This document shows, piece after piece, positions 4,945-35,348 of a stretch of 64,000 nt of DNA. The stretch is from Microbulbifer sp. ALW1 (GTDB taxonomy: Bacteria > Pseudomonadota > Gammaproteobacteria > Pseudomonadales > Cellvibrionaceae). The notes under the pieces are model-generated. The model did not search any database, had not been told where the DNA came from, and worked only from the letters and a program-made list of their open reading frames with translations. Position 1 is the first letter of the stretch. Every line of letters starts with the position of its first letter. The stretch spans positions 2,016,501-2,080,500 of the forward strand of contig NZ_CP047569.1 in NCBI RefSeq assembly GCF_009903625.1. The letters are read 5' to 3'. The position numbers and the translations under genes were made by a program.

Positions 4945-4987
4945 AGCCCGAATGGGCCCTTGTTTAAAACGAGCACCTCGATATTCT
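4945..4987 (+). promoter_or_regulatory. EPS motif copy 1 with overlapping promoter, reading into arm A
   Basis: AGCCCGAATGGGCCCTTG at 4945-4962 contains the palindromic core GCCC-GAAT-GGGC. Its last bases start a -35-like TTGTTT (4960-4965), and a -10-like TATTCT lies at 4982-4987 after a 16-base spacer. Three further copies with the same promoter geometry stand before the other EPS arms (24935-24977, 32184-32227, 35305-35348). The position directly against the -35 suggests an activator site. The box assignments are by eye. Confidence 0.65.
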
Positions 4988-5001
4988 AGCTCCAAAGTGG
5001 G

Positions 5002-5013
5002 TTAACCGGTTAA
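5002..5013. promoter_or_regulatory. perfect 12-bp palindrome TTAACCGGTTAA near the predicted arm A transcript start
   Basis: TTAACCGGTTAA is a perfect palindrome about 15 bases after the predicted -10 of the arm A promoter. Its place at the transcript start would suit a repressor operator. It is not seen at the other three EPS promoters. Confidence 0.3.
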
Positions 5014-5279
5014 GAAGGTATCATTCGTTACCGTAAAAACTGGTAAATCGCGCTGGAGAAATCTTAAGTCGGCAAGCTGAATTTTTTTCCAGTGCATGAG
5101 TGTACCTGAAAAACAGCATCTCAATTTTATTCGTCTTGGTGAGGCAGGTAAAAGATTAGTTGTCATGGGATTTTTCTGGTTTACCTCATTCTATCAGTAC
5201 GTTTGTAAGCGTGGATCAACGTGAGTGACTACATAAACGCACATTGGGTTGGTCTAGTGTCTTGTAAAGTTGGAAGCGG

Positions 5280-6128
5280 ATGATGGCGAGTGTAATTATT
5301 CCTGCCCATAATGAATCAGGCGTCATTGACCGTTGCTTACATTCAATTTTGCAAGAAGGCACTTCAAAAACTGATGCGTTCGAAGTGATTGTTGTCTGTA
5401 ACGGTTGCTCGGATGACACCGCCCTTAGAGCAAAAAAGTATCCGAATGTCACCGTAGTAGAGATCACCGAAGCTTCCAAGATTAAGGCGTTAAATAAGGG
5501 TGACTCAGTTGCAGCATCTTATCCGCGTGTCTACCTGGACGCGGATATTGAAATCAGTTCCGGTTCTCTGAAGAAGGCAATTGAAATTATTCAGTCTTCT
5601 GAAATTCTCGCCGCATCACCAAAAGCTGAGTTTGATCTGACCTCATCCAATATTTGGGTCAAATCGTTTTATGCAATTTGGACCAAACTACCGTATTTCT
5701 CCCGTGGGAAAATGATTGGGTCCGGAATCTACATTCTTTCAGAAGAAGGGCGAGCTAGATTCACGAGCTTCCCAGACTTGGTGTCGGATGATGGCTTTAT
5801 CAGGTCATTATTTAGTGATCATGAAAGACAGACGTTAAATGGATGCCATTTCAAAATCTTCGTGCCTCACACTCTAATAGAGTTAATCAAGATAAAACGG
5901 CGATCTGCCTTTGGCAACCGGGAATTGTCCGCGATCAACCCTAACGCTGATGTTGGTCGTGACAACACCGCAAAAGATCTGTTGGTATTAATTACGAAAA
6001 AACCATGGCTTATACCTGCGGCTATTGTCTATTTGATTGTGAAGCTGCGAATTAATTCTACCAATAGGAAAGCGTTGAGTTCGGGCGCGAAATTCAAATG
6101 GGAACGTGATATGAGTTCACGCGCCTAG
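5280..6128 (+). CDS. family 2 glycosyltransferase, first gene of EPS arm A
   Basis: A 282-residue inverting GT-A glycosyltransferase (GT2-like). It opens with SVIIPAHNESGVIDRCLHSI, followed by VIVVCNGCSDDT and the metal-binding RVYLDADIEI (Asp-x-Asp-like) near residue 90. A hydrophobic stretch near residues 236-256 (ITKKPWLIPAAIVYLIVKL) probably anchors the C-terminus in the inner membrane. It would transfer one sugar during assembly of the EPS repeat unit on its lipid carrier; donor and acceptor are not predictable. GGAAG at 5272-5276 precedes the ATG at 5280, and a second ATG follows directly. It is the first gene behind the motif promoter at 4945. Confidence 0.85.
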   Translation: MMASVIIPAHNESGVIDRCLHSILQEGTSKTDAFEVIVVCNGCSDDTALRAKKYPNVTVVEITEASKIKALNKGDSVAASYPRVYLDADIEISSGSLKKAIEIIQSSEILAASPKAEFDLTSSNIWVKSFYAIWTKLPYFSRGKMIGSGIYILSEEGRARFTSFPDLVSDDGFIRSLFSDHERQTLNGCHFKIFVPHTLIELIKIKRRSAFGNRELSAINPNADVGRDNTAKDLLVLITKKPWLIPAAIVYLIVKLRINSTNRKALSSGAKFKWERDMSSRA

Positions 6129-6158
6129 TTTTTGTGTCACAGACAGGAGTTTTCGTTT

Positions 6159-6644
6159 ATGGATGAACGTAACTTTAACGAAGCCAAAAATACTTCCAAA
6201 AAAGTGCTACTGATTTCATCAAGTGGTGGTCACTGGGTTCAGTTAAGCCGACTTGTGCCAAGTCTTGTTTCGTGTAATTTGTATTTTGCAAGTACTGATA
6301 AGTCATATCAGTCGACTGTTCCTGATGGACATTTCTTTTACGTGCCTGATGCGTCGAGAACAGATACAGTTTTCAAGATTTTAGCGCAAGCGATCACCGT
6401 TCTATTGACCATAATTCGCGTCAATCCACAGGTTGTCATTACAACAGGCGCGGCGCCAGGATTTTTTGCGGTTTTCTTTGCAAAAAAAATGGGTAAGAAA
6501 ACCATTTGGATAGATAGTATCGCCAATGTTTGGGAGATATCAATGTCAGGGTCGAGGGCGATTAAGCACTCGGATTTGATGGTTACCCAATGGCCGCACC
6601 TGGATTCAGAACTGGGTGCCAAGTATTTCGGATCTGTAATTTAA
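6159..6644 (+). CDS. PssD/Alg14-like glycosyltransferase subunit
   Basis: A 161-residue protein of the Alg14/PssD type. The opening KKVLLISSSGGHWVQLSRL is the family glycine-rich segment, and VVITTGAAPGFFAVFFAKKMGKKTIWIDS in the middle is the typical membrane-associated part. In this family the subunit anchors the catalytic PssE/Alg13-like partner at the membrane and provides the acceptor side; the partner is the next gene. The ATG at 6159 is chosen because AGGAG (6145-6149) lies before it; an upstream in-frame start at 6132 lacks a site. It stands 30 bases after the GT2 gene in the same operon. Confidence 0.85.
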   Translation: MDERNFNEAKNTSKKVLLISSSGGHWVQLSRLVPSLVSCNLYFASTDKSYQSTVPDGHFFYVPDASRTDTVFKILAQAITVLLTIIRVNPQVVITTGAAPGFFAVFFAKKMGKKTIWIDSIANVWEISMSGSRAIKHSDLMVTQWPHLDSELGAKYFGSVI

Positions 6645-6773
6645 TTAAACATTCTAAGTCAGAAATTTTACGATGATCCGGCCTGCACACAGAAAGAATT
6701 ATACGGCTAGCTTTTTATCCCGATAGAAAAATGGCCTATCAAGCCGTATAGAGAACATGGAATAGATAAGGCT

Positions 6774-7256
6774 ATGATATTTGTCAGCGTAGGCACACAA
6801 TTACCGTTCGATAGACTTATTTCAGCTATGGACGAATGGGCGTCAGGCCACCAAGGTTCTTCTGTATTTGCTCAGATAGGTGAAAGTCGATACGTTCCGA
6901 GAAATATTAATTTTGAGAAAAGCCTGAGTATTTCAGAGTATACCGATTTCTTTAATGAAGCGAATCTGGTGGTGTCACATGCTGGAATGGGGACAATAAT
7001 TACCGCCTTGGAAACCCGCAAGCCACTCATAATAATGCCCAGGGAGTTTTCTCGCGGAGAACATCGGAACGATCATCAAATAGCGACAGCTGAAAAATTT
7101 TCTCACTTTGATCTGATACATGTCGTCAGAGATTCCGCCAGTTTATTTGGCGCAATCAACGCAGCAATGAAATCCTCTGAGGTGACCTCTAATCCGCGAC
7201 TCGAGGTTTCCGATACGTTGATCAAAGCCATCGAGAGTGTGATTGAATCCGCCTGA
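6774..7256 (+). CDS. PssE/Alg13-like catalytic glycosyltransferase subunit
   Basis: A 160-residue GT28 C-terminal domain protein. MIFVSVGTQLPFDRLISAMDEW at the start, SHAGMGTIITALETRKPLIIMPR in the middle and NDHQIATAEKF are the nucleotide-sugar-binding signatures of PssE, Alg13 and the MurG C-terminal half. It should pair with the PssD-like product of the preceding gene to form one split glycosyltransferase at the inner membrane. A gap of 129 AT-rich bases separates the two genes, which is larger than usual for such a pair; no gene or strong signal was seen in the gap. Confidence 0.85.
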   Translation: MIFVSVGTQLPFDRLISAMDEWASGHQGSSVFAQIGESRYVPRNINFEKSLSISEYTDFFNEANLVVSHAGMGTIITALETRKPLIIMPREFSRGEHRNDHQIATAEKFSHFDLIHVVRDSASLFGAINAAMKSSEVTSNPRLEVSDTLIKAIESVIESA

Positions 7257-7316
7257 CAGGAATGCGGACGTCGAGCCAGCAAAGTGATAACAGAAAACAT
7301 TTATAAAAGGTCGGGG

Positions 7317-8627
7317 ATGGATTCTGTTCATAATGAACACTGTCTTTTGGCAAAATTATTTATTATTTCATTATTTATTCCTGGTGAATTCTATCTGAAT
7401 CTAGGCGGCTTAAGGTTAGAGATGTATCGGGTCATTTTAATGGTCTCTACCTTGAGTAGCTTCCGCTTTGTAACCGGCTCGAGTACTGTCCTGCACCTGG
7501 GCGATAAATGTGTAAATGCAGCTATTCTGTGGGCAGTCGCATCCATATTTCTTAATTATGGCGTTGGAAAAGGCATTGAGAAGTCGGGCATACTCTTTAT
7601 TGAATTGTTTGGAGCTTACTATCTCGCACGGAGAACCTTTGTATCAATAGATAGTATATTGTCGGTTTACAAAGTTTATATCATTTTGGTTTTGGTTATC
7701 TTGCCTTTTAGTTTTATTGAATTTATAACGGGAGATAAGTGGATTCATGAAATTGCGTCTTCGATGACTGGCCATAGGCATTTACCTGCGTCTCTATATA
7801 CCGAAAAATATATTCGGATGGGGATGACGAGATCCGCCAGCGCCTTTTCTCATCCCATTCTAAACGGAATTATATGCGTTACGGTATTGCCAATAGCCTT
7901 TTATCGATACCTTAAAGATAAAAAAATAGGATATTTGTTGATAGTATTTTCTCTCGTTTTGGCAGTAGTGACTTCAATTTCCTCCGCGGCATTTTTAGCC
8001 CTTGCGATATATCTTGCGGTAATTGTTTTTTTCAAATTAAAGCAAAAGATAGGCGACGGAATGAGGCGGGTTATTTGGTTAGTGGTCGCAGCGGCTATAG
8101 TTGTTCAAATGGTCTCCAATCGGGGGCTGGTCAAGTTAGTTATTCAGAACTTGACATTCAATCCCCATACTGGAACGCACAGGTTGCTCATTATTGAGCA
8201 TCTCAAGGATGACATTCTACGAGCGCCTTTCTTTGGTTCAGGTATTGGCGCTCCCTGGTCCGCACCCTTCTGGATGGGGCAAAGTATCGACAATTTTTGG
8301 TGGGCAACCGCATTTTTCTTCGGGATACCATTCCCATTGTTGGTTTCATATTCGGTAATTTACTGCGTTAGAAAAATTCGAGTATCCGCTCATCCTGGAG
8401 AGAGTGACTATTTCGCGTTCTCTGTTATTAGTATGTGTTTGGCGTTTTTATTTCTTGGCCTGACGGTACATCTTTTTGGAAAAGCCCAGCCACTATTTTT
8501 CTTTGTAATCGGAACAGCTGCTGCGGTGGTGGTATTGCTACAAAAAACTATGGATGTATCACCTTCGAATAATAAAAAAGAACAGGTTCCAGGGCTGATG
8601 TGGAGGCGCAACTATGATCTACAATAA
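7317..8627 (+). CDS. O-antigen ligase/polymerase (Wzy-like) membrane protein
   Basis: A 436-residue integral membrane protein with about ten hydrophobic segments. The region around residues 165-185 (RMGMTRSASAFSHPILNG) and the large periplasmic loop near residues 280-345 (LTFNPHTGTHRLLIIEHLKDDI, then GSGIGAPWS) resemble the Wzy/O-antigen ligase family, in which the R-x-G motifs of the loops and conserved His bind lipid-linked glycans. In an EPS locus with a flippase it most likely polymerises the repeat units. The ATG at 7317 is preferred because AAAAGG (7305-7310) precedes it; a GTG at 7284 could add eleven residues. It overlaps the next gene by 14 bases, so the two are probably translationally coupled. 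Confidence 0.75.
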   Translation: MDSVHNEHCLLAKLFIISLFIPGEFYLNLGGLRLEMYRVILMVSTLSSFRFVTGSSTVLHLGDKCVNAAILWAVASIFLNYGVGKGIEKSGILFIELFGAYYLARRTFVSIDSILSVYKVYIILVLVILPFSFIEFITGDKWIHEIASSMTGHRHLPASLYTEKYIRMGMTRSASAFSHPILNGIICVTVLPIAFYRYLKDKKIGYLLIVFSLVLAVVTSISSAAFLALAIYLAVIVFFKLKQKIGDGMRRVIWLVVAAAIVVQMVSNRGLVKLVIQNLTFNPHTGTHRLLIIEHLKDDILRAPFFGSGIGAPWSAPFWMGQSIDNFWWATAFFFGIPFPLLVSYSVIYCVRKIRVSAHPGESDYFAFSVISMCLAFLFLGLTVHLFGKAQPLFFFVIGTAAAVVVLLQKTMDVSPSNNKKEQVPGLMWRRNYDLQ

Positions 8628-9063
8628 AAGTTTTCAGCGATTGATTATCTTCATTCGACATCACTTACTCTCGGTTCGCCGGTGGATCCTTATTAATTTC
8701 TATGGAATGAATATCGGTAAAGATGTACGTATATCATTAAAGGCGAACTTGGATAAGCGACATCCGAGAGGTGTGCATATCGGTGATGGTTCTTATGTTG
8801 CCTTTCACTCGACAATCCTATGTCATGATATGTCCAGAAATATCTATTGGGATGTTGTTATAGGAAGAAATTGCTTTATCGGAGCTCGCAGCATAATTAT
8901 GCCCGGCGTGACCATTGGAGATTCTGTTGTTGTTGCTTCTGGCGCGGTGGTAACCAAGAATGTAGAGAGTAATGTCATCGTCGCGGGAAATCCTGCAAAG
9001 GTAATTAAAACAGGCATAAAAACGATCAAGTGGGGTAGGTTAGTCAATGAAACAGAAGGTTGA
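8614..9063 (+). CDS. left-handed beta-helix (hexapeptide) acyltransferase
   Basis: A 149-residue protein with hexapeptide-repeat turns: GVHIGDGSYVAFHSTIL, WDVVIGRNCFIGARSIIMPGVTIGDSVVVASGAVVTKNV and IVAGNPAKVIKTG. This is the LbetaH fold of sugar O- or N-acetyltransferases (maltose/galactoside acetyltransferase-like). A short N-terminal segment is hydrophobic and basic, suggesting contact with the membrane. It probably acetylates a sugar in the repeat unit, using acetyl-CoA. GGAGG at 8602-8606 gives a strong ribosome site. It overlaps the polymerase gene before it by 14 bases and the glycosyltransferase gene after it by 17 bases. Confidence 0.85.
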   Translation: MIYNKSFQRLIIFIRHHLLSVRRWILINFYGMNIGKDVRISLKANLDKRHPRGVHIGDGSYVAFHSTILCHDMSRNIYWDVVIGRNCFIGARSIIMPGVTIGDSVVVASGAVVTKNVESNVIVAGNPAKVIKTGIKTIKWGRLVNETEG

Positions 9064-10027
9064 AGATGTCCGATCTACAAAGGTAAGTATCTTGATCGTT
9101 TGCTATAACTCTCTTGCTGATATAGGGCAATGTATAGCCAGCGTAACGAATGATATTCAAAAGTATGAACTTGACGCTGAGATGTTACTGGTAGACAACT
9201 CAAATGATGGCACTGTTGATTTCGTATCGAAAAGCTATCCGTCAGTGAAGATCATTGAAAACAATACCAACCTGGGATTTGCCGCTGGTAATAACTTACT
9301 TGCCAAGTATGCAAAAGGGGATTACTTTCTATTATTGAATCCGGATACGAAGGTTTTTGACGGAGCAATTAGCAACTTACTCTCGATTTCTCAGGAGTAT
9401 CCCGAGTGCGGTGCCTGGGGCGGAAGTACATATTTTCCCGATGGTAAAAGGGAATACTCTTCTCTGCAAGTTGAACCCACCTTGAAAAGTGAGTTTGTCA
9501 ACCTCCTGGGATTGTCTCGCTTCTTCTCTGGCCGTGTATCACTGAATAAAACAGACAAGTTGACCCCGGTACTGTCCGGCGCATTTATGATGATTTCAAG
9601 GGAGATTTGGAGTCAGCTAGATGGATTTGATACAGGGTATTTTCTGTATAGCGAAGAAGTCGATCTCTGCTTTCGAATTAGAAAAATAACTGATTCAATG
9701 TTGTTGATGTCGGATAGAGCAAGTGTGACACATTTTGTAGGGAAGAGCTCTTCTAGTAGTGAGAGGACTCTGTTGATGTACAAGGGTAAAATGCACTATT
9801 GCCGGAAGCATTATGGGATAAGTTATAGTTTTTTTTATGGAACATTACTTTGGCTATACGCGCTGTCCCGCTATGTTGCAGGTTGGATGCTACGTCTGAC
9901 TCCGTCAAAAGGAAGTTCCAGGAACCTCGTGGAGAAGTTCCGTGTGGTGGTGTCAGCGCCTTGGGGATGGTCTGGGGGGTATCGAGAAGCGATTGCTGAC
10001 TCAACTGATTGTCGGAGTGGGGCGTGA
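9047..10027 (+). CDS. family 2 glycosyltransferase (rhamnosyltransferase-like)
   Basis: A 326-residue GT2 enzyme of the WbbL/RfbF-like type. SILIVCYNSLADIGQCI near residue 14, the GFAAGNNLLAKYAKGDYFLLLNPDTKV segment (NPDT as the metal-binding motif) near residue 95, and GYFLYSEEVDLCFRIRK near residue 200 are characteristic. The C-terminus has a hydrophobic stretch that may lie on the membrane. Related enzymes add rhamnose to lipid-linked intermediates; the sugar here is not proven. The stop TGA (10025-10027) overlaps the GTG of the next gene. Confidence 0.85.
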   Translation: MKQKVEDVRSTKVSILIVCYNSLADIGQCIASVTNDIQKYELDAEMLLVDNSNDGTVDFVSKSYPSVKIIENNTNLGFAAGNNLLAKYAKGDYFLLLNPDTKVFDGAISNLLSISQEYPECGAWGGSTYFPDGKREYSSLQVEPTLKSEFVNLLGLSRFFSGRVSLNKTDKLTPVLSGAFMMISREIWSQLDGFDTGYFLYSEEVDLCFRIRKITDSMLLMSDRASVTHFVGKSSSSSERTLLMYKGKMHYCRKHYGISYSFFYGTLLWLYALSRYVAGWMLRLTPSKGSSRNLVEKFRVVVSAPWGWSGGYREAIADSTDCRSGA

Positions 10028-11145
10028 AGGAGCGAAGTATACTTTTGGCAAATGCCTTGTCCGGAAGAGATAATAATCTCAATCTCATCCGATTTGTCGC
10101 TGCGACCATGGTTTTGGTTGCACATAGTTTTACCATAGTTACTGGTGACGCATCCCTAGAGCCATTTTCTTCTTCTATCAACAAGTCTATAGGTTCAGTT
10201 GCAGTAGATATTTTCTTTATCATCAGCGGGATGTTGATTACGGGAAGCTTGGTTCAAAATCCAAATTACACTCGTTATGCCATTTCCAGGATAATACGGA
10301 TATTACCTGCACTATTTGTCGCGAATATTTTGACGGTATTGGTTTTAGGTCCGTTATTTACTGGTTACACCCTCATTGAGTACATACTGGAAATAAGCTG
10401 GCTGAAGTATCTGATTAAAAATGGTTCTCTGCTTCTGGGAGTGCAGTATCAGCTTTCCGATCTGTTTGCCTCCGCGCCATATCCGGGCGTCGTAAACGGA
10501 TCGCTTTGGACGCTTCCCTATGAATTGAAAATGTATTTTTTAGTCGCGCTACTATTTTCTGTTTGCTCATTTCTAAATATAAATGAACGTGAAAAGACTT
10601 TTCGTTCTTGCGTGTCAGTGGTTGTCCTTTTGAGTCTGGCGTATTTGATTGCCGGAATTATACTTCAGGATTCGATTATCCCTTATTGGAAGGGGGGGCG
10701 CCTAGTCTACATGTTCTTTCTGGGCGCGCTGTTTTTCCTGTGGAGAGATAAAATTGTTTTGTCTGGAAAGCTATTTGTCATTTCATTAACGGCTGTTGCT
10801 TTAAGTTTCAATTCGCATGAACTGTTTTTATCAGCCTATCTGATATTTCTTCCCTATATTGTTATCTTCTTGGCTTATGTTCCAAAAGGAAGGGTGCGTC
10901 GTTTTAACCAGATTGGCGATTTTTCTTACGGTATCTATATTTATGCGTTTCCGATTCAGCAGGCCTTGATCTCAACATGGCAAGATATGTCTGTTTTGGC
11001 GATGGTTTTAGGAGCATTTTCAATCACTTTGCTGCTTTCGGTTCTTAGTTGGTATTTTGTCGAAAAGCCAAGTCTTTCAAAAAGAAATGTCATTTATGAA
11101 GTGGTAACGAATCGGGTATTTAAAAGCAGTGCAGCTTCTTATTAA
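10024..11145 (+). CDS. membrane acyltransferase family 3 (OafA/YrhL-like), without SGNH domain
   Basis: A 373-residue membrane protein of the acyltransferase-3 family. NNLNLIRFVAATMVLVAHSF carries the family Arg and the proposed catalytic His, followed by GSVAVDIFFIISGMLITGSL, and NGSLWTLPYELKMYFLVALLF contains the conserved Trp-Thr-x-x-x-Glu-x-x-x-Y/F motif. About ten membrane helices are visible. It should transfer acetyl or another acyl group onto a sugar at the inner membrane. The GTG at 10024 is chosen because it overlaps the previous stop (GTGA) and has GGAGTGGGG just before it; a TTG at 10009 is an alternative. The SGNH domain often fused to this family is encoded by the next, overlapping gene. 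Confidence 0.85.
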   Translation: MKERSILLANALSGRDNNLNLIRFVAATMVLVAHSFTIVTGDASLEPFSSSINKSIGSVAVDIFFIISGMLITGSLVQNPNYTRYAISRIIRILPALFVANILTVLVLGPLFTGYTLIEYILEISWLKYLIKNGSLLLGVQYQLSDLFASAPYPGVVNGSLWTLPYELKMYFLVALLFSVCSFLNINEREKTFRSCVSVVVLLSLAYLIAGIILQDSIIPYWKGGRLVYMFFLGALFFLWRDKIVLSGKLFVISLTAVALSFNSHELFLSAYLIFLPYIVIFLAYVPKGRVRRFNQIGDFSYGIYIYAFPIQQALISTWQDMSVLAMVLGAFSITLLLSVLSWYFVEKPSLSKRNVIYEVVTNRVFKSSAASY

Positions 11146-11893
11146 ACGAGGTTTCATTCAGGTATCAGTTACACTGATTTTTGCTGTACTTGCGCTGGCT
11201 GTTCACAAGCTATTGTTGTACAAGCAAATAAGTGAAGAGCGGCTTGCACCACTCGGACCAATGCGTTTTAAAGAATATGGCAGCTCAGGCGATACCGATA
11301 ACAATATAACTAAGATAGCATTCCTGGGGGATTCGCGTGCGAGCGACTGGGCTGGCTATTTCTCAAAACGTCATGGTGTTGATGTAATCAATCTTGGCAT
11401 AGATGGACAAACGACAGCACAGGTTCTCTATCGAATAGGATACCAACTTGCAGATTTGGACATTGATATAATTATTATTCAGGTCGGTATAAATGATTTG
11501 AAAGTTATTGGCTTCGATCGGTCGCGAACTAACGAAATCATCAATCTTTGCAAAGTAAATATTTCTAAATTGGTGAATTTGGTTAGGAAAACTAATGCCA
11601 AAGTGGTGTTGACGACGGTCTTCCCAAGAGGAGATATGAATTTCGCACGTCAGTTCCTCTGGAATGAAGATGTAGATCTGGCAATACTGGAGATAAATGA
11701 TTTTATCCGAAAGGAGTACGAGGAACGAATCACAGTCGTCGATACATATTCAATTCTGAGGGATTCTGATCTCAGGGTGAATGACGCATATAGTCTGGAT
11801 TTCTTCCATTTAAATTCCGCAGGATATGATGCCATTGACGCTGATGGAGGCTTTAGGGCTTCATTAACCAAAGATAATACTTTCCCAAATTAG
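11129..11893 (+). CDS. membrane-anchored SGNH/GDSL hydrolase, partner of the acyltransferase
   Basis: A 254-residue protein with one N-terminal membrane helix (residues 9-31) and a periplasmic SGNH domain. FLGDSRASDW puts the nucleophile Ser near 69, NLGIDGQTT the Gly near 93, VGINDLK the Asn near 122, and DFFHLN the Asp/His pair near 224-227, so all four SGNH blocks are present. In OafA-type proteins this domain completes the acyl transfer; here it is a separate protein. The GTG start overlaps the acyltransferase gene by 17 bases. Alternatives are a de-acetylase or a periplasmic esterase. It is the last gene of arm A, and its stop lies 8 bases from the stop of the convergent arm B. Confidence 0.8.
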   Translation: MQLLIKRGFIQVSVTLIFAVLALAVHKLLLYKQISEERLAPLGPMRFKEYGSSGDTDNNITKIAFLGDSRASDWAGYFSKRHGVDVINLGIDGQTTAQVLYRIGYQLADLDIDIIIIQVGINDLKVIGFDRSRTNEIINLCKVNISKLVNLVRKTNAKVVLTTVFPRGDMNFARQFLWNEDVDLAILEINDFIRKEYEERITVVDTYSILRDSDLRVNDAYSLDFFHLNSAGYDAIDADGGFRASLTKDNTFPN

Positions 11894-11901
11894 CGTTGGC
11901 T

Positions 11902-24873: not shown

Positions 24874-24934
24874 TATGAGAAGAGATAGCTAGCCCAGTCT
24901 GGGAATAACTTTCGCCTTTTACTTCTTTATATAG

Positions 24935-24977
24935 AGTACACACGTGCCACTAGTGTTGGCATTGGCCCATTCGGGTA
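24935..24977 (-). promoter_or_regulatory. EPS motif copy 2 with overlapping promoter, reading into arm B
   Basis: Read on the minus strand, TACCCGAATGGGCCAATG (24977-24960) matches the motif at 16 of 18 positions of the best copies or better in its core. ATGCCA (24962-24957) takes the -35 place and TGTACT (24940-24935) the -10 place with a 16-base spacer. The predicted transcript would start near 24928, upstream of both possible starts of the giant protein. Confidence 0.6.
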
Positions 24978-27660: not shown

Positions 27661-27789
27661 GAGTGATCCTCCACTTTAAATCGTCCACACTGAAAATTTT
27701 CTAACGGAAGGTTCGGCTCATCCGTGGATTAAGGCTAGCTATTGTCCACTGGTCAATTTTTGTTCTCGTTATGGTTTTTCCCTGCGGGT

Positions 27790-28620
27790 TTAATAATCGT
27801 AATGAGCAAACTCTTTTTCATTTTTTACCATGTTCAAGACCGTTCCAATGAGATTTGTATCAGGAATTTGCTGTAAACATTCGTCTATTTCATTCTCCGT
27901 ATAGGATCCATCCGGGATTACCAATAGCGCACAGTCGATAGATGGTAGTATCGAAATCGTGTCATCCGATCGTAATATCGGAGGCAAATCGAAGATAACT
28001 ATACCGTCATTGTTATTTGACTTGGTCGAGGTGATAACATCTTGAACCTTTTTCGATGCCAAGTGCTCGGTTGAATTATCAATCCTGTGAGCAGCACCGG
28101 TGACTGACAACCGCGCGAGTTGTGGTTTTATGAGTGTTTCTTCGAATAAACACCGGTCTTCGAGAAAATCGTTTAGCGAATGTTCCGGGCGAATTCCAAT
28201 ATAACTAAGCACACTGGGGCTGCGCAGATCAAAATCTATAAGAAGTGCTCTCCGATTCGGAAGTTGTGCGATACTCATCGCGAGATTGATGGCAACAACT
28301 GACTTACCGGCACCAGGTGATGGTGAAATAATGGCAAGTGAACGCCATCCGTTGAGAGTCATTCTATGTAGTACATGCGTGCGTAAACGATCATATACGC
28401 CACAAAAAGGATTACGCTTGCTGTAGGCAAATATCCGGTTTTTTTCCAGATGCGCAGAGTCCAATGGTGTCGGTTCTAGTTCAAGATCATGTAATGCCGG
28501 TCTTTCTTGTAATCGAATACTTTGTAATTCCGACACAACGTTTCGATCGTTGCCTTCACTTCTGACTTCAAGCAAATTATGCGTTCTTGTCTTTTCCAGG
28601 GCTTCCTTAATCTTTTCCAT
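27790..28620 (-). CDS. exosortase-locus tyrosine autokinase (Wzc/CapB-like)
   Basis: A 276-residue cytoplasmic BY-kinase of the type found in PEP-CTERM/exosortase EPS loci. Walker A SPSPGAGKS lies at residues 99-107, Walker A' ALLIDFDLRSPS at 125-136, and Walker B VIFDLPP near 208-214. The C-terminal tail ends in a small Tyr pair (HYDY) rather than a long Tyr cluster, typical of this subfamily. It would phosphorylate itself in contact with the chain-length protein encoded by the gene before it and so control polymerisation. The gap to that gene is 8 bases. Confidence 0.88.
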   Translation of the reverse strand: MEKIKEALEKTRTHNLLEVRSEGNDRNVVSELQSIRLQERPALHDLELEPTPLDSAHLEKNRIFAYSKRNPFCGVYDRLRTHVLHRMTLNGWRSLAIISPSPGAGKSVVAINLAMSIAQLPNRRALLIDFDLRSPSVLSYIGIRPEHSLNDFLEDRCLFEETLIKPQLARLSVTGAAHRIDNSTEHLASKKVQDVITSTKSNNNDGIVIFDLPPILRSDDTISILPSIDCALLVIPDGSYTENEIDECLQQIPDTNLIGTVLNMVKNEKEFAHYDY

Positions 28621-28628
28621 ATCTTTAT

Positions 28629-30218
28629 TTATCCGATTCTGGCTACTACCTTGAACACGAGAATGTCGAGTGGCATTAATAGAAAGTGGATGCCAGTTAA
28701 TACCGCTAATGTCGTTAGCGCACCTCCAGCGATAATTCCACGCTTCACAATCTTTGCGTGAACCAGCTCTTCACTTGAAGCAACATATGGAATGACTACA
28801 AGGGGTCTTTCTCCAATAAGATGAGTAAGGGGTCTAGCTCCAAACAGCTGGCCACCTTTTAATTCCAAAAGAAGAACCAGGCCAAGGGCACCCGCTACAG
28901 CAAGCACGAAACCTGCAGCAGCAATTTTTTTCCTGTTTGGTTTAATTGGGCTTTCCGGTAAAATCGGCGGCTCCAACACGGAAAATCTTTCCGCCTTCTT
29001 GGCTTCCTCAAGGCTCTCAGCTATTTTTGCTTCAATCTCTTTAGACTGAATTTCCTTATACTTCTTTAATGTATTTTCGTAATTTCTGTTTAAAGATATT
29101 AGCGCACGTTGTACTTGCGGCGTTTGAATAATGATAGACTCTAAACGATTCCGCTCATTTTCTAGTTGCTGTAACTCTCGCTCGAGAGATTCTTCTCTTC
29201 CGATTGCAGATGCAATTTTTGCCTGGATTCTTGCGCTATCCAGATTCTCTGCTGAGTTAGGCAGCGCATTTGAAGACCCTGTTGCAGCGCTTGATTCCGC
29301 CAATAGCTTTATGTTCTGAATATGATGCTGCTGACGGATTACGTCTGGATGAAGCTCTGAATAACGAACTTTGAGACGCGCAAGGTACTCTTCAGCTACA
29401 GCTAATTCCTGCTCACGGCTTAAAGGCGTATTCGGTTGTGAATCGACTCCGACGCCTCTACGAATTGCTCTCTGTTCCAGCTGCAGCAATCTCAACTCAT
29501 CAGTCGCCGATTTGATGTCTCGCTCTTGGGCGAGAATAGATGCTTCGGTTCTTTCGAGCATCTTAATATGCAGATCCAGATGCTCTGGGAGGGAATCACT
29601 GTTCTCTTGTTTGTAGTTGGCTATCTTTTCCTCGATTGATTCCAGTTCAGTTTTAAGTTTTGTTGCTTCCTGGGTAAGAAATTCTGTTGTCTCGGATGCC
29701 CTGCGTGTCCGAGCTTTTACGTTTTCCTCTAAAAATAGTGTTACAAGCTCATTGGCTACTGCGTGAGCTACCTTGGGAGATCTATCTTCGAATCCCACTG
29801 TAAATGCCAGTGTTGTACGTCCCCTGTTTGACCCTGAGTCCCCCGTAACTTTTGCGATAGAAACCTTCTGCCGCATTAAGTCGAGTTGTTCGGAGGATGA
29901 TAGGTTGCCACGAACATCACTGAATAGATCGTACTTGTCAATTACATTGAGCAGGTTTTCTCGAGTCATCACCAATTGTTGTATAACCTGAATTCGCTCT
30001 TCGGCATAGCTCGATACGGTGGAGCGAATCAGGTCATCAGGGATCTTCTGTGACTCGATAAGTATTGTTCCTTTCGAATGGAACGTTGCCGGAATCTTGA
30101 GGGCGACGATAATGGCCAATCCGAAAATAAGTAGAAATGGTGGAACCATGATCGGCCACCTACGCTTGAAAATTCCAAGATAGTCTGCCAGTGAAAGTTC
30201 ATAGCGATTGCCTATCAT
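28629..30218 (-). CDS. Wzz/GumC-like polysaccharide chain-length determinant
   Basis: A 529-residue inner-membrane copolymerase protein. It has a membrane helix near residues 19-40 (WPIMVPPFLLIFGLAIIVALKIP), a long coiled-coil periplasmic region (about 170-420, with EATKLKTELESIEEKIANYK and later EESLERELQQLENERNRLE), and further helices near 430-450 and at the C-terminus. The order and PPILPESPIKPNRKK before the second helix are the usual Wzz features; the length fits the exosortase-locus subfamily. It sets polymer length and links the polymerase to the Wza-like exporter. It lies 5 bases from the barrel gene before it. Confidence 0.9.
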   Translation of the reverse strand: MIGNRYELSLADYLGIFKRRWPIMVPPFLLIFGLAIIVALKIPATFHSKGTILIESQKIPDDLIRSTVSSYAEERIQVIQQLVMTRENLLNVIDKYDLFSDVRGNLSSSEQLDLMRQKVSIAKVTGDSGSNRGRTTLAFTVGFEDRSPKVAHAVANELVTLFLEENVKARTRRASETTEFLTQEATKLKTELESIEEKIANYKQENSDSLPEHLDLHIKMLERTEASILAQERDIKSATDELRLLQLEQRAIRRGVGVDSQPNTPLSREQELAVAEEYLARLKVRYSELHPDVIRQQHHIQNIKLLAESSAATGSSNALPNSAENLDSARIQAKIASAIGREESLERELQQLENERNRLESIIIQTPQVQRALISLNRNYENTLKKYKEIQSKEIEAKIAESLEEAKKAERFSVLEPPILPESPIKPNRKKIAAAGFVLAVAGALGLVLLLELKGGQLFGARPLTHLIGERPLVVIPYVASSEELVHAKIVKRGIIAGGALTTLAVLTGIHFLLMPLDILVFKVVARIG

Positions 30219-30223
30219 GATAC

Positions 30224-31420
30224 TTAGTCCACCAAGCTATAATTCAGAGAAAAAGAAATTACGTTTGCTTTTGCCATTTCAATTCGGTCCAGGTATTTGT
30301 ATTGCCATGCGATTCGAGAACTCCATCTATCCATAATTCGATGCTTGGCTTGCAATTCCAGGAGCGACACACGGTTACGCTCTAATGAATCCACATCTCT
30401 CAAGCTGGCAGAAATGTTGAATTCTGTTTTTGGCGAGTAAAGATAAGAAAAATTTACTTTTAGGCTGTCAGCAGTGACGAATCTTCCAAGTCCGCTGGGC
30501 GTTGTCTCTCTTGCGTAGACCGCTTGATATCTGGTTTTTTTTCCAAGAAAGGAGATTTTAAAAAAACCGTTCCAATCTATTTCATCACTGGCGTTCTCTG
30601 AACCTTCCGTATATATCGTTTCTACCCCGAATTCAGACGCAGCGTTTTCAGAAATTTGAAAGCGCATGTTTAGCAATAAACCGACTAGCTCTGAAGTCTT
30701 CGCGGTATCGATTTCTGGGGATAACAATTGCGCCTTCAAGGCAAGCTGTCCAGAAAATTGTTCACTAGCCTGATGCTGAAGATAAGTTCCGAGATTACCG
30801 ACTTGATAACTAACGAAGTCATCACTCGAGTATTTGACATCCGATAGGCCTCCAGATAGGCCAATTTCGCTCCTTTCTGCTAACTGATATTGCCAATCAA
30901 TACTTGCCTCTGAATCAATTCTAGTTTCGTCGGAATTTATTTTGCCAGTATCATACAGCTCGCTGACAAGAGTGGAGGTCTCCCGGTAGTTGGCAGTAGT
31001 TGACAGTGCACTACGGGATCTGTTCTCTGAGTAAGTGAGCGACAAATTCGGGTCGTTTCGATCGTTAATGAGATCTGTATTTGACGACTCTACTAGGTTC
31101 AGTCCCGCATTCACATTCAAGCTTCTACTAGGAGCCTGCCATTGAAGCCACATTTTTGGTTTGATGAGGCCACTGTAGACTGCGTCTTTCGCTTCCGATT
31201 CAAGTTTAGGATTTGTGGCGTAATCACCGCCGAAAGCTAGACTATAACCGAAAGTTTCAGCTTCACTTTTACTCGCTGTAACAACGCTTCCTGCAAGTAA
31301 TATCTGGGTTAAGGGCTTCAGGAGGAATCGAAATCCAGGAAATTTCAGGTCAGGCTTCAGTCTCCTGCCAATAGTTTTCACGTCACGGAACCAGAATAGT
31401 GTCACCCGCTTGAAGGGCAT
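30224..31420 (-). CDS. outer-membrane beta-barrel protein of the exosortase/EPS locus
   Basis: About 398 residues. After a basic start comes a hydrophobic segment (FLLKPLTQILLAGSVVTAS) that looks like a signal, then a long region of alternating polar and hydrophobic residues rich in Ser, Thr, Tyr and Asn, ending in an aromatic-poor strand (ANVISFSLNYSLVD). This matches the PEP-CTERM-associated outer-membrane barrel family that sits beside wza/wzz genes. Its role is probably to support polymer exit. The start is unsure: ATG 31420 or GTG 31381, the latter one base after the stop of the exporter gene; the frame is open further upstream to 31528, overlapping the exporter gene. Confidence 0.75.
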   Translation of the reverse strand: MPFKRVTLFWFRDVKTIGRRLKPDLKFPGFRFLLKPLTQILLAGSVVTASKSEAETFGYSLAFGGDYATNPKLESEAKDAVYSGLIKPKMWLQWQAPSRSLNVNAGLNLVESSNTDLINDRNDPNLSLTYSENRSRSALSTTANYRETSTLVSELYDTGKINSDETRIDSEASIDWQYQLAERSEIGLSGGLSDVKYSSDDFVSYQVGNLGTYLQHQASEQFSGQLALKAQLLSPEIDTAKTSELVGLLLNMRFQISENAASEFGVETIYTEGSENASDEIDWNGFFKISFLGKKTRYQAVYARETTPSGLGRFVTADSLKVNFSYLYSPKTEFNISASLRDVDSLERNRVSLLELQAKHRIMDRWSSRIAWQYKYLDRIEMAKANVISFSLNYSLVD

Positions 31421-31961
31421 GATTACTTGAGAGGTTTTTTCCTGAGAGTATATCGCTATAAAAAACCTCGATCTGTTCTTGCCCTTTATCGGAATATCGA
31501 AGTATGCGGATGTCATTCTCATCGGCAAAGGTATCTAGGCCTCCAGCCAAGCTGAGTGCCTGTACAACGCTCAGTGGTGTACTCATGATGTAGGTTCCGG
31601 GACTTTTCACATGCCCAAGAACGTAAATGCGGTTTCCCTCCGTTGCTTCGACAATAATAGAAACTGTTGGCGAGGGAACGTATTGCTCGAGTTTGTTTGC
31701 GAGTCGCGATTCCACTTCGGGTACTGATAAGCCACTTACTAGTACACTCCCAGTGAGCGGAAAGCTGATGCTGCCGTCCGGTAGGACCAGTGTTTTCCGA
31801 TTTAGCTTCTCTTCTCCCCATACAGAAACGTGTAAGCTGTCTCCTGGCTTCAGCTGATATGCTTCGCCTGCCTGAGTATCAATGGTGACTAGCGTAATCC
31901 ATAGGGCAAAAAAAATAAGGCTGCTAACCCGGCCAGGTTTTATCCAGTGTTGAGTAATCAT
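31383..31961 (-). CDS. Wza-like polysaccharide export lipid/outer-membrane protein
   Basis: About 192 residues. A membrane segment (VSSLIFFALWITLVTIDTQA) serves as signal; no lipobox Cys is visible. AYQLKPGDSLHVSVWGEEKLNRKTLVLPDGSISFPLTGSV is the Poly_export domain, followed by a SLBB-type region (NRIYVLGHVKSPGTYIMSTPLSVVQALSLAGG). It lacks the long C-terminal part of Wza and matches the shorter PEP-CTERM-locus export protein. It should form the periplasmic/outer-membrane channel for the EPS. The start at 31961 is preferred because it puts the signal at the N-terminus; the frame is open up to 32111. It is the first gene of arm C. Confidence 0.85.
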   Translation of the reverse strand: MITQHWIKPGRVSSLIFFALWITLVTIDTQAGEAYQLKPGDSLHVSVWGEEKLNRKTLVLPDGSISFPLTGSVLVSGLSVPEVESRLANKLEQYVPSPTVSIIVEATEGNRIYVLGHVKSPGTYIMSTPLSVVQALSLAGGLDTFADENDIRILRYSDKGQEQIEVFYSDILSGKNLSSNHALQAGDTILVP

Positions 31962-32183
31962 AATTACGATTCTAGAAGCTTGTGCCGAAAAGTTGCTTGC
32001 GGGCCTCAGTGCGAGATGATCTTGGTGAACTTCCCATACCCTTTTTCCGATCATGGATTTTATGACTCTGAAGCTTTCAACTGAGGGAGCGCAATCAAAT
32101 AGTCTCCGCAAATGCGGGTCAAATGGATTGGTAGATTGGTGCCTGGGTAAGGCTATTCCAGAGTTTCAAGGTTTTAAGTCGCG

Positions 32184-32227
32184 ATCCTATGTGGGGATCC
32201 GGGTAACCACAATGGCCCGCTCGGGCT
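32184..32227 (-). promoter_or_regulatory. EPS motif copy 3 with overlapping promoter, reading into arm C
   Basis: On the minus strand AGCCCGAGCGGGCCATTG (32227-32210) matches the EPS motif. TTGTGG (32212-32207) is the -35 and TAGGAT (32189-32184) the -10, with a 17-base spacer. Just upstream a second partial copy (AATGGGCCATT, about 32235-32225 on the minus strand) overlaps it, so two proteins could bind side by side. The transcript would start near 32177. Confidence 0.65.
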
Positions 32228-32975
32228 AATGGCCCATTGAACAGCAATCTCGGCTTTTTCGTGATCGTCTATTCATTAGTTTTCGAATAATTTGAATAGG
32301 CCTGTGAAAAATTTGAATAAGTTAAGGAAGTCGTTTATGTGGATTCAGGCGCCGGACAGGGTGCGAAAATAAAATGTCATGTTATTCCAATGTGATTTTC
32401 TTTCGGAATAAATAGATGTTAAACCTCGGCCTTTGTACTTTTGGCTCGATTTATGCGTTATCTAGAGGCGTCGGAATTGAATTCTATCTTTAGGCATGTG
32501 AAAGAATTGTGTACCTGGAGAGATTTTGTTTAGAAGGAAGGGTGCGTTCATCACGCCATTCATTTGGTTGTGACGGTAATGCCTATAGTGCGTTGAATTC
32601 GGCGACGATTCCAGAGGTGAAGAAGAGGGCTGGATCAAAATTTTTTCCCAGGCCGCGGCTTCCGTGAAGTAACCGACAAATTTTTTGTTACTTTTTGGGG
32701 CGATTTTCGTCTCATTATGGTGCGCTTGAGTTTGCTTTTTTCACTTTCTGGTTTTTTGTGAGTTTGAGTTCAAGGGAAGAGTGTGACACGGGCCTCAAGT
32801 AGTGCTAGCTTTAGAGGCGCCTGGTCTGGCTGGACTAACATCTGGTACGACCGTACGGTATTTGCGCGATTTTTTTTGGGGGGGGCCCCAGGAAGTTAAA
32901 GCACTTTACTTTGAAGTTCATGGAATAGCGTCGAGGACGATTTTGTCGTCGCGTTAGAGAACGCAGGTGGGGAAA
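32228..32975. other. 748-bp gene-free region before epsA
   Basis: It lies between the arm C promoter and the regulator gene. It contains a perfect 10-bp palindrome ACCGTACGGT at 32850-32859 and a homopolymer block of eight T, eight G and four C at 32870-32889, about 90 bases before the epsA start. Many stops occur in all frames; no protein gene, RNA gene or clear terminator was seen. The size suggests long-range control of epsA or of both flanking units. Confidence 0.5.
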
Positions 32976-33821
32976 ATGGATACTTTGGTTAAGGAGCCTG
33001 GGCTGGCTTCATTGAGTGAATGTACTGATTCTTACAGGGTACATGAATATGCCCAAACTCCAATTAGTAGTAACAAGCTTTTCACTGCACTTCGGTCTTC
33101 TTGTGCAGTAGCGAGTCGTCCCGACTTGTATCATTGGCTTCGCTCTGAAATTCATCCTCTGTTACCTCACGAAAGCTTTTTTGCTGCCTGGGGTGATTTC
33201 AGCAAGCGTGAGCTTTCGTATGATGTGATTTCCTCTAGCCAGCGTATCGATGCGCAAACGATATCCGGGTTTGACGGTGTCGAAAGTGCTATGGAACGTT
33301 TATTCGATACGGTTACGCAGGCAGGTGGAACATGGCTTTTATATAAGGATTTTCATCGCTTGGCTGAAGAGTGTGGTATCGATACTCGATCCAGGATTTA
33401 TCGGGTTGCCATGGCTCGCACCCGTATGCTTCTCGTGTATGCGTTGCAAGACAAGCGTAGTATGCATGATTGTCTTTACATATTCTCTATTGATAAGCAA
33501 CCGGCAGTTTTCGATCCTTTATTGCTCGATGTGTTAATGCCGCACATCGATGTTGCGTTGCGGCGAATAAAATCATTGTCGATTGTGTGTCGTGGTAAAT
33601 CGAAAGTCTCCGGTGTAACTATCGATTTGTTAAGCGTGCGAGAGCGCGAAGTGCTGAACTGGGTTAGTAAGGGAAAGTCGAATGAAGAGATCGGCTTGAT
33701 TCTCGGGATAAGTCTCAATACGGTGAAAAATCACCTCAAGCGCATCTTTAGTAAGATGGGTGTCACAGCGAGGTCGCAGGCAGTCGGTGTTTATGTTCAG
33801 TGCAGCGCTGGGGCGGTCTGA
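32976..33821 (+). CDS. epsA: EpsA-like LuxR-family regulator of the EPS locus
   Basis: A 281-residue transcription factor. The C-terminal LuxR/GerE helix-turn-helix spans about residues 210-270: LLSVREREVLNWVSKGKSNEEIGLILGISLNTVKNHLKRIFSKMG. The N-terminal 190 residues have no receiver Asp pattern or autoinducer-pocket residues I can recognise and match the EpsA regulators found in exosortase/EPS loci. It likely controls EPS transcription and is the best candidate for binding the 18-bp motif. ATG 32976 is chosen because AGGTGGGG lies before it; a GTG at 32967 is an alternative. Its stop overlaps the ATG of the next gene (TGATG). Confidence 0.82.
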   Translation: MDTLVKEPGLASLSECTDSYRVHEYAQTPISSNKLFTALRSSCAVASRPDLYHWLRSEIHPLLPHESFFAAWGDFSKRELSYDVISSSQRIDAQTISGFDGVESAMERLFDTVTQAGGTWLLYKDFHRLAEECGIDTRSRIYRVAMARTRMLLVYALQDKRSMHDCLYIFSIDKQPAVFDPLLLDVLMPHIDVALRRIKSLSIVCRGKSKVSGVTIDLLSVREREVLNWVSKGKSNEEIGLILGISLNTVKNHLKRIFSKMGVTARSQAVGVYVQCSAGAV

Positions 33822-35251
33822 TGTCTGGTATTGAGCTGTCCATTCCTCGAAGATCCGCCCTTCGGCGTAAGGATGATCTGTCCAGTACCGCACTGGCGGC
33901 CCTAGATGGTGTGGTCATTATTGCTATCGCATGGGGTCTTGTTCGCCTAAATGTAGGTACTCTTACCACCGAATATCTATCGATGATGCTTTTGTTGCTC
34001 GCTGGTTTGGCGGTTTCGTTTGACCACCTGGCAATATATCGCAGTAACAGACGCTTCAGTGTCAGGGTGTTCAACCTTTTCAAGGCATGGACCCTGACTT
34101 TCTTGCTACTTATCTCTGTTGGTTTCGCATTCAATATAAGTGAGAGTTATTCGCGAACGGTAGTTGCGCAGCTATATGTTTTGGGAATTATTTTTACAGC
34201 GTTATTACACTACGTTTTCTATCGATTTCAAAAGTTGCGATCACAAGGTTCAGGGGCTACTGAACATGCAATTGTTATAGGTCAGGGCGATCTGGCGGGC
34301 TATCTGTCGATGAAGATTCGCAGCAACCCATGGCTTGGTCAGAGGTTGATCGGGACGGTTTCACTGGGTGAGCCTGAGCAGGAGAGGGCCGAATTGGGGT
34401 TTAATGGTGAGAAGTTGCCGTTATTGGGCAGTATTTCGCGATTGTCAGAGATACTGGTTTCTAATGACATCCGTGTTGCATATATCGTTACTCCACTAGA
34501 GAACTCACGAGTTCTGAATGAGCTGTATTTTACCCTTTTGGATCACCAAATCGCGATACATTGGGTACCCGACATTTTTTCTTTGCGTTTGATTAATCAT
34601 GGGGTTGATGAAATTGCCGGCATTCCCGTTTTAACTTTGTCGGAAACTCCCCTAACTGGTACCCGATTGCTCTGGAAATCTTTGGAAGACATTGTCATTT
34701 CCGCGATTCTTTTGGTGTTGGTCAGTCCTTTGCTTTTGTTAATTGGTGTTGCGATAAAACTGGATAGTTCCGGCCCCGTCATCTTTCGACAAAAGCGGGC
34801 CGGATGGAATGGCCGCAATTTCCATATTTGGAAATTTCGTAGTATGCATGTGCACCAGCAGGAAGGTGGCAATGTACAGCAAGCATTTAGGGGTGACCCT
34901 AGAGTCACGCGGGTTGGCGCATTTCTTCGCCGCACTAGCCTGGATGAGTTGCCGCAATTGATTAATGTGTTACGTGGGGAGATGTCGCTGGTCGGCCCGA
35001 GACCACACGCTATCCAGCATGACGCTGAATACTCCAGGCGTATTGCTGAGTATTTTGCCCGCTATCATATCAAGCCCGGTATCACGGGTTTGGCGCAGGT
35101 ACGTGGTCACCGGGGCGAAACCGCTGAACTCAGTCAAATGATTCAGCGGGTCGAGTCGGATATAGAGTATATTAATAACTGGTCAATATGGCTTGATTTC
35201 ACCATTTTGGTTCGTACTTTTAATGCATTTACAGGTAAGTCTGCTTACTGA
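33821..35251 (+). CDS. undecaprenyl-phosphate sugar phosphotransferase (WcaJ/EpsB-like)
   Basis: A 476-residue polyprenol-phosphate hexose-1-phosphate transferase that starts the EPS repeat unit. Four to five N-terminal membrane helices (about 25-130), a CoA-binding-like Rossmann segment (HAIVIGQGDLAGYLSMK) and a further helix near 285-310 precede the catalytic domain: SSGPVIFRQKRAGWNGRNFHIWKFRSM, LRRTSLDELPQLINVLRGEMSLVGPRPHA and the C-terminal KPGITGLAQVRGHRGE. The Asp-Glu pair in SLDELPQ is the catalytic dyad. It loads a sugar phosphate, often glucose, on the lipid carrier. Translation is coupled to epsA by the TGATG overlap. A weak hairpin (AGTGGC/GCCACT) follows near 35257-35284. Confidence 0.9.
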   Translation: MSGIELSIPRRSALRRKDDLSSTALAALDGVVIIAIAWGLVRLNVGTLTTEYLSMMLLLLAGLAVSFDHLAIYRSNRRFSVRVFNLFKAWTLTFLLLISVGFAFNISESYSRTVVAQLYVLGIIFTALLHYVFYRFQKLRSQGSGATEHAIVIGQGDLAGYLSMKIRSNPWLGQRLIGTVSLGEPEQERAELGFNGEKLPLLGSISRLSEILVSNDIRVAYIVTPLENSRVLNELYFTLLDHQIAIHWVPDIFSLRLINHGVDEIAGIPVLTLSETPLTGTRLLWKSLEDIVISAILLVLVSPLLLLIGVAIKLDSSGPVIFRQKRAGWNGRNFHIWKFRSMHVHQQEGGNVQQAFRGDPRVTRVGAFLRRTSLDELPQLINVLRGEMSLVGPRPHAIQHDAEYSRRIAEYFARYHIKPGITGLAQVRGHRGETAELSQMIQRVESDIEYINNWSIWLDFTILVRTFNAFTGKSAY

Positions 35252-35304
35252 AAGAGTGGCTTCTCATTCCTGGAACTCGCCACTTTAATAACGGCTGTTT
35301 AGAT

Positions 35305-35348
35305 AGCCCTAGTGGGCCATTGTCGTCTTTCCTTGTGGTACGTATTGT
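35305..35348 (+). promoter_or_regulatory. EPS motif copy 4 with overlapping promoter, reading into arm D
   Basis: AGCCCTAGTGGGCCATTG at 35305-35322 is followed by a -35-like TTGTCG (35320-35325) that shares its last bases and a -10-like TATTGT (35343-35348) after 17 bases. The transcript would start near 35355, about 30 bases before the VPLPA-CTERM gene. Confidence 0.65.

What the first reader, a model, noticed from the sequence alone, without database searches (positions are those of the whole stretch)
4945..35348. One 18-bp operator-promoter module in front of all four arms of the EPS/exosortase locus
By eye the motif AGCCCGANTGGGCCATTG occurs four times: 4945-4962 (+), 24960-24977 (-), 32210-32227 (-) and 35305-35322 (+). 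Each copy points at the first gene of a different transcription unit: sugar assembly, the LamG/sulfation arm, export, and protein sorting. In all four the ATTG end supplies the -35, and a -10-like hexamer follows after 16-17 bp (TATTCT, TGTACT, TAGGAT, TATTGT). The core GCCC-N4-GGGC is palindromic. This predicts one activator, bound right against RNA polymerase, for the whole 36-kb locus. I know of no described motif of this form.
Basis: seen in the sequence. Interest (0 to 1): 0.85.

Follow-up and report, generated by a model that had tools for sequence, protein, structure and literature searches.

The report
Shared promoter switch of exopolysaccharide island
Four separate gene groups of one bacterial slime-polysaccharide island start at the same short palindromic DNA switch, kept almost unchanged in a second species, and the island's own LuxR-type regulator EpsA is the likeliest protein to throw it.

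Summary
All four sites exist, though none equals the quoted 18-mer (1, 3, 1 and 1 mismatches). A same-genus genome, G082 (taken to be Microbulbifer mangrovi), has the same island and all four sites in the orthologous places, 16 of 18 bases kept at each. Across the eight sites CCC-N4-GGGCC-NN-TG never varies, and 8 of 8 have TANNNT 19-21 nt downstream, against 2 of 36 exact matches elsewhere. In both genomes four of five exact genome-wide hits lie in the island. The palindrome centre falls at about -42.5 to -44.5, the position of the lux box and of one working NarL site. EpsA is the only DNA-binding protein recognised in the island; its model has a LuxR autoinducer-domain fold plus a GerE HTH. 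Best reading: EpsA directly activates four of five transcription units; epsA-wcaJ lacks a site of its own. Binding and direction of control are inferred. Against: a 47%-identical EpsA in another genus lacks the palindrome nearby. A known kind of regulon with an operator not found described.

The parts
4945..4962 (+). operator S1 (AGCCCGAATGGGCCCTTG), in front of the sugar-assembly arm 5280-11893
   Evidence: ortholog in G082:C29:12601-12618(-), 16/18 identical
4982..4987 (+). -10 of S1, TATTCT, 16 bp after TTGTTT
   Evidence: identical in G082
24960..24977 (-). operator S2 (TACCCGAATGGGCCAATG), in front of the LamG/sulfotransferase/Wzx arm 24873-11902
   Evidence: ortholog G082:C127:53231-53248(+), 16/18
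24933..24938 (-). -10 of S2, TACTCT, 18 bp after ATGCCA; surrounding GTGTGTACTCTATA kept in G082
32210..32227 (-). operator S3 (AGCCCGAGCGGGCCATTG), in front of the export arm 32111-25291; an extra half-site GGGCCATT lies just upstream
   Evidence: ortholog G082:C127:46106-46123(+), 16/18; extra half-site
32184..32189 (-). -10 of S3, TAGGAT (TACTCT at the same place in G082)
35305..35322 (+). operator S4 (AGCCCTAGTGGGCCATTG), in front of the PEP-CTERM/XrtD/PrsT-like/ATPase arm 35385-40979
   Evidence: ortholog G082:C127:43097-43114(-), 16/18
35343..35348 (+). -10 of S4, TATTGT, identical in G082
32967..33821 (+). epsA, LuxR-type regulator (GerE HTH 221-273; N-terminal LuxR autoinducer-domain fold); proposed binder. 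The protein-database entry starts at the ATG three codons later
33800..35251 (+). WcaJ-type initiating sugar transferase, overlapping epsA; same unit, no operator in front
36091..37695 (+). exosortase XrtD with EpsI-like C-terminal domain
   Evidence: TIGR04152 541.8 bits, cut-off 400
31383..31961 (-). polysaccharide export protein; start probably ATG at 31961 (192 aa, as the ORF in G082), not TTG 32111, giving an S3 leader of about 215 nt

Best explanation
The four sites are one operator-promoter module of a small, self-contained regulon. A dimer of EpsA, the LuxR-type regulator encoded in the same island, binds the 16-18 bp palindrome (T/R)GCCC-N4-GGGCC-(A)NTG centred at about -42.5 to -44.5, abutting or overlapping a weak -35, and recruits sigma-70 RNA polymerase to a TANNNT -10 element 16-18 bp downstream (class II activation). 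It thereby switches on together the sugar-assembly, LamG/sulfation, export and protein-sorting units; epsA-wcaJ is transcribed separately. Shown: the sites, their conservation in a second species, their concentration in the island, and their geometry relative to a conserved -10-like box. Inferred: that EpsA is the protein, that it activates, and that a ligand of its N-terminal domain controls it.
Against: An EpsA with the same recognition helix NTVKNHLKRIF but 47% overall identity (G114) has no CCC-N4-GGG outside frames of 110 aa or more in the 20 kb around it and no exact site on the 60 of 69 kb of that contig that I scanned. G114 has two exact hits genome-wide: one under a 413-aa frame, about 32 kb from its distant XrtD, the other not looked at. 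Loci of relatives at 27-33% (G250, G164, G312, G334) hold one exact match, in G334 under a 385-aa frame, and no promoter-like one; their recognition helices differ. One off-island exact hit (G049, L137) is in a stretch without long frames and does have TACTCT at 21 nt, in a genome without EpsA at the threshold. Only two genomes carry the module, so conservation rests on one comparison. Ungapped flank identity understates similarity where there are indels; gapped alignments of 150 bases on each side, site included, give 0.45-0.60. A LysR-type gene is conserved in both genomes at 91% just outside the island (50978-51919), and another lies at 41022-41891 in the window only. epsA has no site of its own; S3 read backwards matches with one mismatch but is about 740 bp away. 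No expression or binding data exist, and start sites are assumed from -10 boxes.
Confidence: 0.68

Rival explanations
1. The same operator is real, but it is read by a regulator encoded outside the island (for instance the flanking LysR-type gene at 50978-51919), and the island has adopted that regulator's site.
For: Binding by EpsA is unproven; G114 has an EpsA without the palindrome nearby; a LysR-type gene is conserved in the right flank of both genomes.
Against: A core regulator should have other sites; the off-island exact hits are 1 in G000, under a 546-aa frame, and 1 in G082, under a 169-aa frame. The other 46 genomes of the genus lack EpsA at the threshold and show 0-4 hits each, against 0-8 for the reversed-pattern control.
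Confidence: 0.15
2. EpsA (or another protein) represses the four promoters from this site, like EsaR-type LuxR repressors (recalled).
For: The site touches the -35, and the sequence cannot tell repression from activation.
Against: The centre at -42.5 to -44.5 and the poor -35 boxes are typical of activation.
Confidence: 0.12
3. The conserved blocks are promoters for a dedicated sigma factor, without a separate operator.
For: Both a -35-side and a -10-side block are conserved at nearly fixed distance.
Against: The conserved -35-side block is a 14-16 bp palindrome, not a hexamer; spacing varies by 2 bp; no sigma factor was recognised among the island proteins scanned (the Sigma70_r4 match of EpsA covers its HTH); the -10 boxes resemble sigma-70.
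Confidence: 0.04
4. Chance resemblance picked out by eye.
For: The short core alone is not enriched.
Against: De novo scan, conservation of all four and -10 association.
Confidence: 0.01

Closest known systems
LuxR-family class II activation at a lux box
   Same: LuxR-type fold and GerE HTH; palindrome centred near -42.5 beside the -35 (PMC4471428, passages)
   Different: Half-site GGCCC/GGGCC and 16-18 bp length differ from the 20-bp lux box; no Pfam autoinducer-domain match listed
NarL 7-2-7 operator
   Different: Outer bases GGCCC instead of the NarL heptamer (recalled as TACYYMT); EpsA has a LuxR-like N-terminal domain, no receiver domain
PrsR/sigma-54 element of PEP-CTERM genes (Haft 2006)
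   Same: Shared cis-element of an exosortase/EPS system
   Different: That one is a -24/-12 sigma-54 promoter with an upstream activator site in front of PEP-CTERM genes (PMC1569441, abstract and passages); S1-S4 have -10-like boxes, and PrsR is below cut-off in both genomes
EpsA, XrtB-associated regulator (TIGR03020)
   Same: Nearly full-length match, 163.5 bits
   Different: Just below the cut-off of 170; beside XrtD rather than XrtB. The searches made listed no paper on an EpsA operator

Membership tests
EpsA (TIGR03020) | score over the curated cut-off (170) | tested here: not met
   163.5 bits, positions 2-243 of 247
EpsA (TIGR03020) | association with exosortase XrtB | tested here: not met
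   the exosortase of the island is XrtD, TIGR04152 541.8 over 400; XrtB 89.9 under 275
LuxR-type regulator | C-terminal GerE HTH | tested here: met
   PF00196 E 7e-19; 32 of 32 members of A1 at E up to 10
LuxR-type regulator | N-terminal autoinducer-binding fold | tested here: met
LuxR-type regulator | sequence match to the Pfam autoinducer-binding domain | tested here: inconclusive
   not among the 10 families of P0001 nor the 25 shown of 35 for A1 at E up to 10
Class II activated promoter | operator centred about -41 to -45, next to the -35 | tested here: met
   -42.5, -44.5, -43.5, -43.5 from assumed -10 boxes
Class II activated promoter | transcript start at the predicted place, activator-dependent | not testable with these tools
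   no expression data
PrsR/sigma-54 PEP-CTERM regulon | -24 GG / -12 GC element at the promoter | tested here: not met
   a strict pattern scan found two matches in the window, 32442 and 36950, none at S1-S4
PrsR/sigma-54 PEP-CTERM regulon | PrsR encoded in the genome | tested here: not met
   best 368.2 bits in G000 and 362.7 in G082, cut-off 502.6

The most novel reading that the evidence does not exclude
EpsA is a LuxR-like receptor for a non-canonical small molecule, and the operator GGCCC-N4-GGGCC is the main or only genomic target of that signal. A whole sulfated-EPS/exosortase island would thus carry its own sensor and one repeated sigma-70 switch, instead of the PrsK/PrsR/sigma-54 control known for other PEP-CTERM systems.
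Probability: 0.3. Interest if true: 0.65.

Novelty: new member of a known kind. Interest (0 to 1): 0.5.

Why it matters
It gives EpsA regulators a concrete operator to test and links one regulator to polymer assembly, sulfation, export and exosortase sorting at once. If right, a single deletion or induction of epsA would switch a whole matrix island, and it shows an exosortase locus controlled without the sigma-54/PrsR element at its operon promoters. It also suggests a LuxR-like receptor of unknown ligand controlling a biofilm matrix.

Tried and rejected
The core GCCC-N4-GGGC alone was rejected as a criterion: not enriched. Family-wide counts of the 17-base pattern are not informative by themselves: 78 of 144 genomes have at least one, and the reversed control gives counts of the same order. 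A shared operator in distant EpsA loci was sought and not found. In G114 the half-site GGCCA occurs 6:0 on one strand of two stretches (1,702 bases) treated as non-coding beside its epsA (shuffle P 0.008); the word was chosen after looking, so this is only a hint. A CCCAAGTGGG upstream of xrtD in Methylotenera versatilis (L036:9854) lacks the GGGCC-NN-TG half, and no EpsA match at E 1e-10 lies in the fetched 21 kb; judged chance. Plasmid records: no EpsA match at E 1e-15. Rfam: nothing at gathering score in 4600-36100. The ops element GGCGGTAG does not occur in the island. PMC string searches for the motif in five spellings: 0 papers; this covers only those spellings and an open-access library. 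Searches for EpsA/XrtB/exosortase regulation listed no paper on an EpsA operator; only listings and abstract starts were seen, except passages of PMC1569441, PMC9850573, PMC9314961 and PMC4471428.

A first ungapped comparison of S1 was misaligned by one base (8 of 18) and was redone (16 of 18). In one search one off-island locus (L005, at a contig end) was read at the wrong place; the classification was redone for all 30 loci. The last genome search (8 genomes, E up to 1e-40) found nothing and was set too strictly to mean anything; G164 itself did not ring. PrsR was looked for in two genomes only.
Full report
WHERE IT IS. The window lies at 2016501-2080500 of a 4.68-Mb single-contig genome. 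A same-genus genome, G082, holds the same island; its EpsA contig of 57,523 bases and 71% identity match the database protein P0003 of Microbulbifer mangrovi, so the window is taken to be a Microbulbifer (inference). The island runs from about 4.7 to 41 kb. Its G+C is 0.41-0.53 by segment against 0.54-0.59 in the flanks, and it sits in the same place in both genomes: the left flank (4114-4599) is 83% and the nearest right flank (49333-51926) 85% identical, while the island pieces align at 68-76%. The stretch 41-49 kb (a LysR gene, two frames without a Pfam match, glycine cleavage genes) does not align at that place in G082. EpsA at E up to 1e-15 is in 3 of 144 family genomes, two of them among the 48 of the genus.

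UNITS. Sugar assembly 5280-11893 (+): glycosyltransferases, Alg14-like, Wzy-like, hexapeptide and other acyltransferases, GDSL. LamG/sulfation 24873-11902 (-): a 2,445-aa GSDH/PKD/Ig/LamG protein, a protein with a weak phosphodiesterase match, a sulfotransferase, glycosyltransferases, Wzx-like. Export 32111-25291 (-): export protein, a protein without a Pfam match, chain-length and tyrosine-kinase homologs, F5/8 beta-helix protein. Regulator unit 32967-35251 (+): EpsA and a WcaJ-type transferase. Sorting unit 35385-40979 (+): PEP-CTERM protein, XrtD, PrsT-like TPR protein, ATPase. The first two units end 8 bases apart, convergently. All but the large LamG gene were matched one by one in G082 by tblastn; that gene aligns in DNA.

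THE OBSERVATION. The four sites are real. Over the eight sites in the two genomes, CCC-N4-GGGCC-NN-TG is invariant; the second spacer base is A in 7 of 8, and the base before CCC is G or A. In G082 three sites (S1, S3, S4) are GGCCC-N4-GGGCC. Site-specific quirks are kept between species: CCTTG at S1, TACCC and CAATG at S2, CATTG at S3 and S4. So each site seems maintained on its own rather than copied from its neighbours.

SIGNIFICANCE. Three tests are less so. First, a de novo search for 5-gap-5 words shared by the four promoter regions finds only this motif. Second, G082 was not used in defining the motif, and it holds all four sites at the orthologous places. They include the one on a separate contig, C29, found by a whole-genome pattern scan (6 hits, 4 of them in the island). 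Each keeps 16 of 18 bases while ungapped flank identity is 0.27-0.30 for S1-S3 and 0.48 for S4, whose surroundings are close to coding sequence. Gapped alignments of 150 bases on each side, sites included, give 0.45-0.60. The -10 regions are the other conserved islands in those alignments. Third, the -10: 8 of 8 island sites have TANNNT 19-21 nt after the final G; 2 of 36 other exact matches do at 18-22 nt. The 36 are the exact hits in the loci that I had, not all hits. One of the two (L137, genome G049) is in a stretch without long frames. The offsets were set on the window sites, so the fair figure is that for the four G082 sites, Fisher 1.6e-4.

GENOME-WIDE. With RCCCNNNNGGGCCMWTG and no mismatch, G000 and G082 have five hits each, the most among 144 family genomes; four of the five lie in the island in each. 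The two strays lie under open frames of 546 and 169 aa. At one mismatch, G000 has 47 rows, five of them from the four island sites (S3 is read on both strands). Of the 25 off-island sites among the 30 loci fetched (17 rows were not fetched), 22 lie under an open frame of 150 aa or more; none of the island rows lies under one longer than 68.

RELATED LOCI. XrtD occurs in 22 of 144 family genomes at E up to 1e-20. I fetched up to 40 kb around the 20 others (35 stretches; several cut by contig ends): no exact CCCNNNNGGGCCMWTG, and 12 one-mismatch rows; no EpsA match at E 1e-10 in these stretches. The module therefore goes with EpsA, not with XrtD. The exception is G114, whose EpsA is 47% identical with the same recognition helix: no CCC-N4-GGG outside frames of 110 aa or more in 20 kb. 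Its EpsA sits near a contig end beside a F5/8 beta-helix gene, so other targets may lie on another contig; still, this counts against a strictly conserved EpsA operator.

MECHANISM. Taking the -10 box as -12 to -7, the palindrome centres lie at -42.5, -44.5, -43.5 and -43.5. LuxR homologs usually bind at -42.5 (PMC4471428, passage), and NarL works from a single site 32 bp upstream of the -10, that is at -44.5 (PMC9314961, passages). The -35 hexamers (TTGTTT, ATGCCA, TTGTGG, TTGTCG) match TTGACA at 3-4 of 6 and the -10 boxes match TATAAT at 3-4 of 6, with 16, 18, 17 and 17 bp between them (read). Weak promoters with an operator at the class II position point to activation. The spacing of the CCC and GGG triplets equals that of a NarL 7-2-7 site (my comparison; the heptamer sequence is recalled).

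OTHER REGULATORS. None of the other 24 island proteins scanned matched a DNA-binding transcription-factor family. Outside the island, a LysR-type gene at 41022-41891 is present in the window only; another at 50978-51919 is 91% conserved in the right flank of G082. The second cannot be excluded as a reader of the sites, but it is part of the ordinary flank and not of the island.

COMPARISON. The known shared element of PEP-CTERM systems is a sigma-54 promoter with a predicted PrsR site (PMC1569441, abstract and passages), shown to be RpoN-dependent for one gene in Aquincola (PMC9850573, abstract and passages). S1-S4 are not of that type. A conserved sigma-54-like sequence does lie upstream of epsA (see Noticed in passing), so a link to that kind of control is conceivable but untested.

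VERDICT. A real, conserved operator-promoter module of four units; EpsA is the likely direct activator. The kind of system is known; the operator sequence and its pairing with an exosortase island were not found described in the searches made.

Noticed in passing
window 32442-32456 (+): A sigma-54-like sequence TTTTGGCTCGATTTATGC lies about 510 nt upstream of epsA, conserved in G082 (C127:45916, -); a strict scan gave only two matches in the window and two in the G082 contig. It may drive epsA; PrsR itself is below cut-off in both genomes.
   Followed up: partly
window about 32755-32812 (+): A second conserved non-coding block upstream of epsA (TTGAGTTTGAGTTCAA...AGTGTGACACG...CTCAA.T.GTGCTA) stands out in the G082 alignment; no Rfam match.
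   Followed up: no
window 32228-32239 (-): An extra half-site CAATGGGCCATT lies directly upstream of S3; G082 has only a weaker version, TGGACCATA.
   Followed up: no
window 4700-41000: The island is 68-76% identical to that of G082 while the nearest flanks are 83-85%, and it is A+T-rich: a fast-evolving or exchanged allele at a fixed chromosomal place.
   Followed up: partly
window 35385-35945 (+): The PEP-CTERM protein next to XrtD is the only match of PF07589 and of the VPLPA-CTERM model TIGR03370 (below cut-off) in the whole genome: the exosortase may serve a single substrate.
   Followed up: no
window 4994-5280: The first unit has a leader of about 285-300 nt in both genomes, largely without sequence conservation and without Rfam match or ops element.
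   Followed up: no
L040:1922-4436 (G114): GGCCA occurs six times on the epsA strand and never on the other in two stretches taken as non-coding beside a 47%-identical epsA (P 0.008 by shuffling, post hoc).
   Followed up: partly
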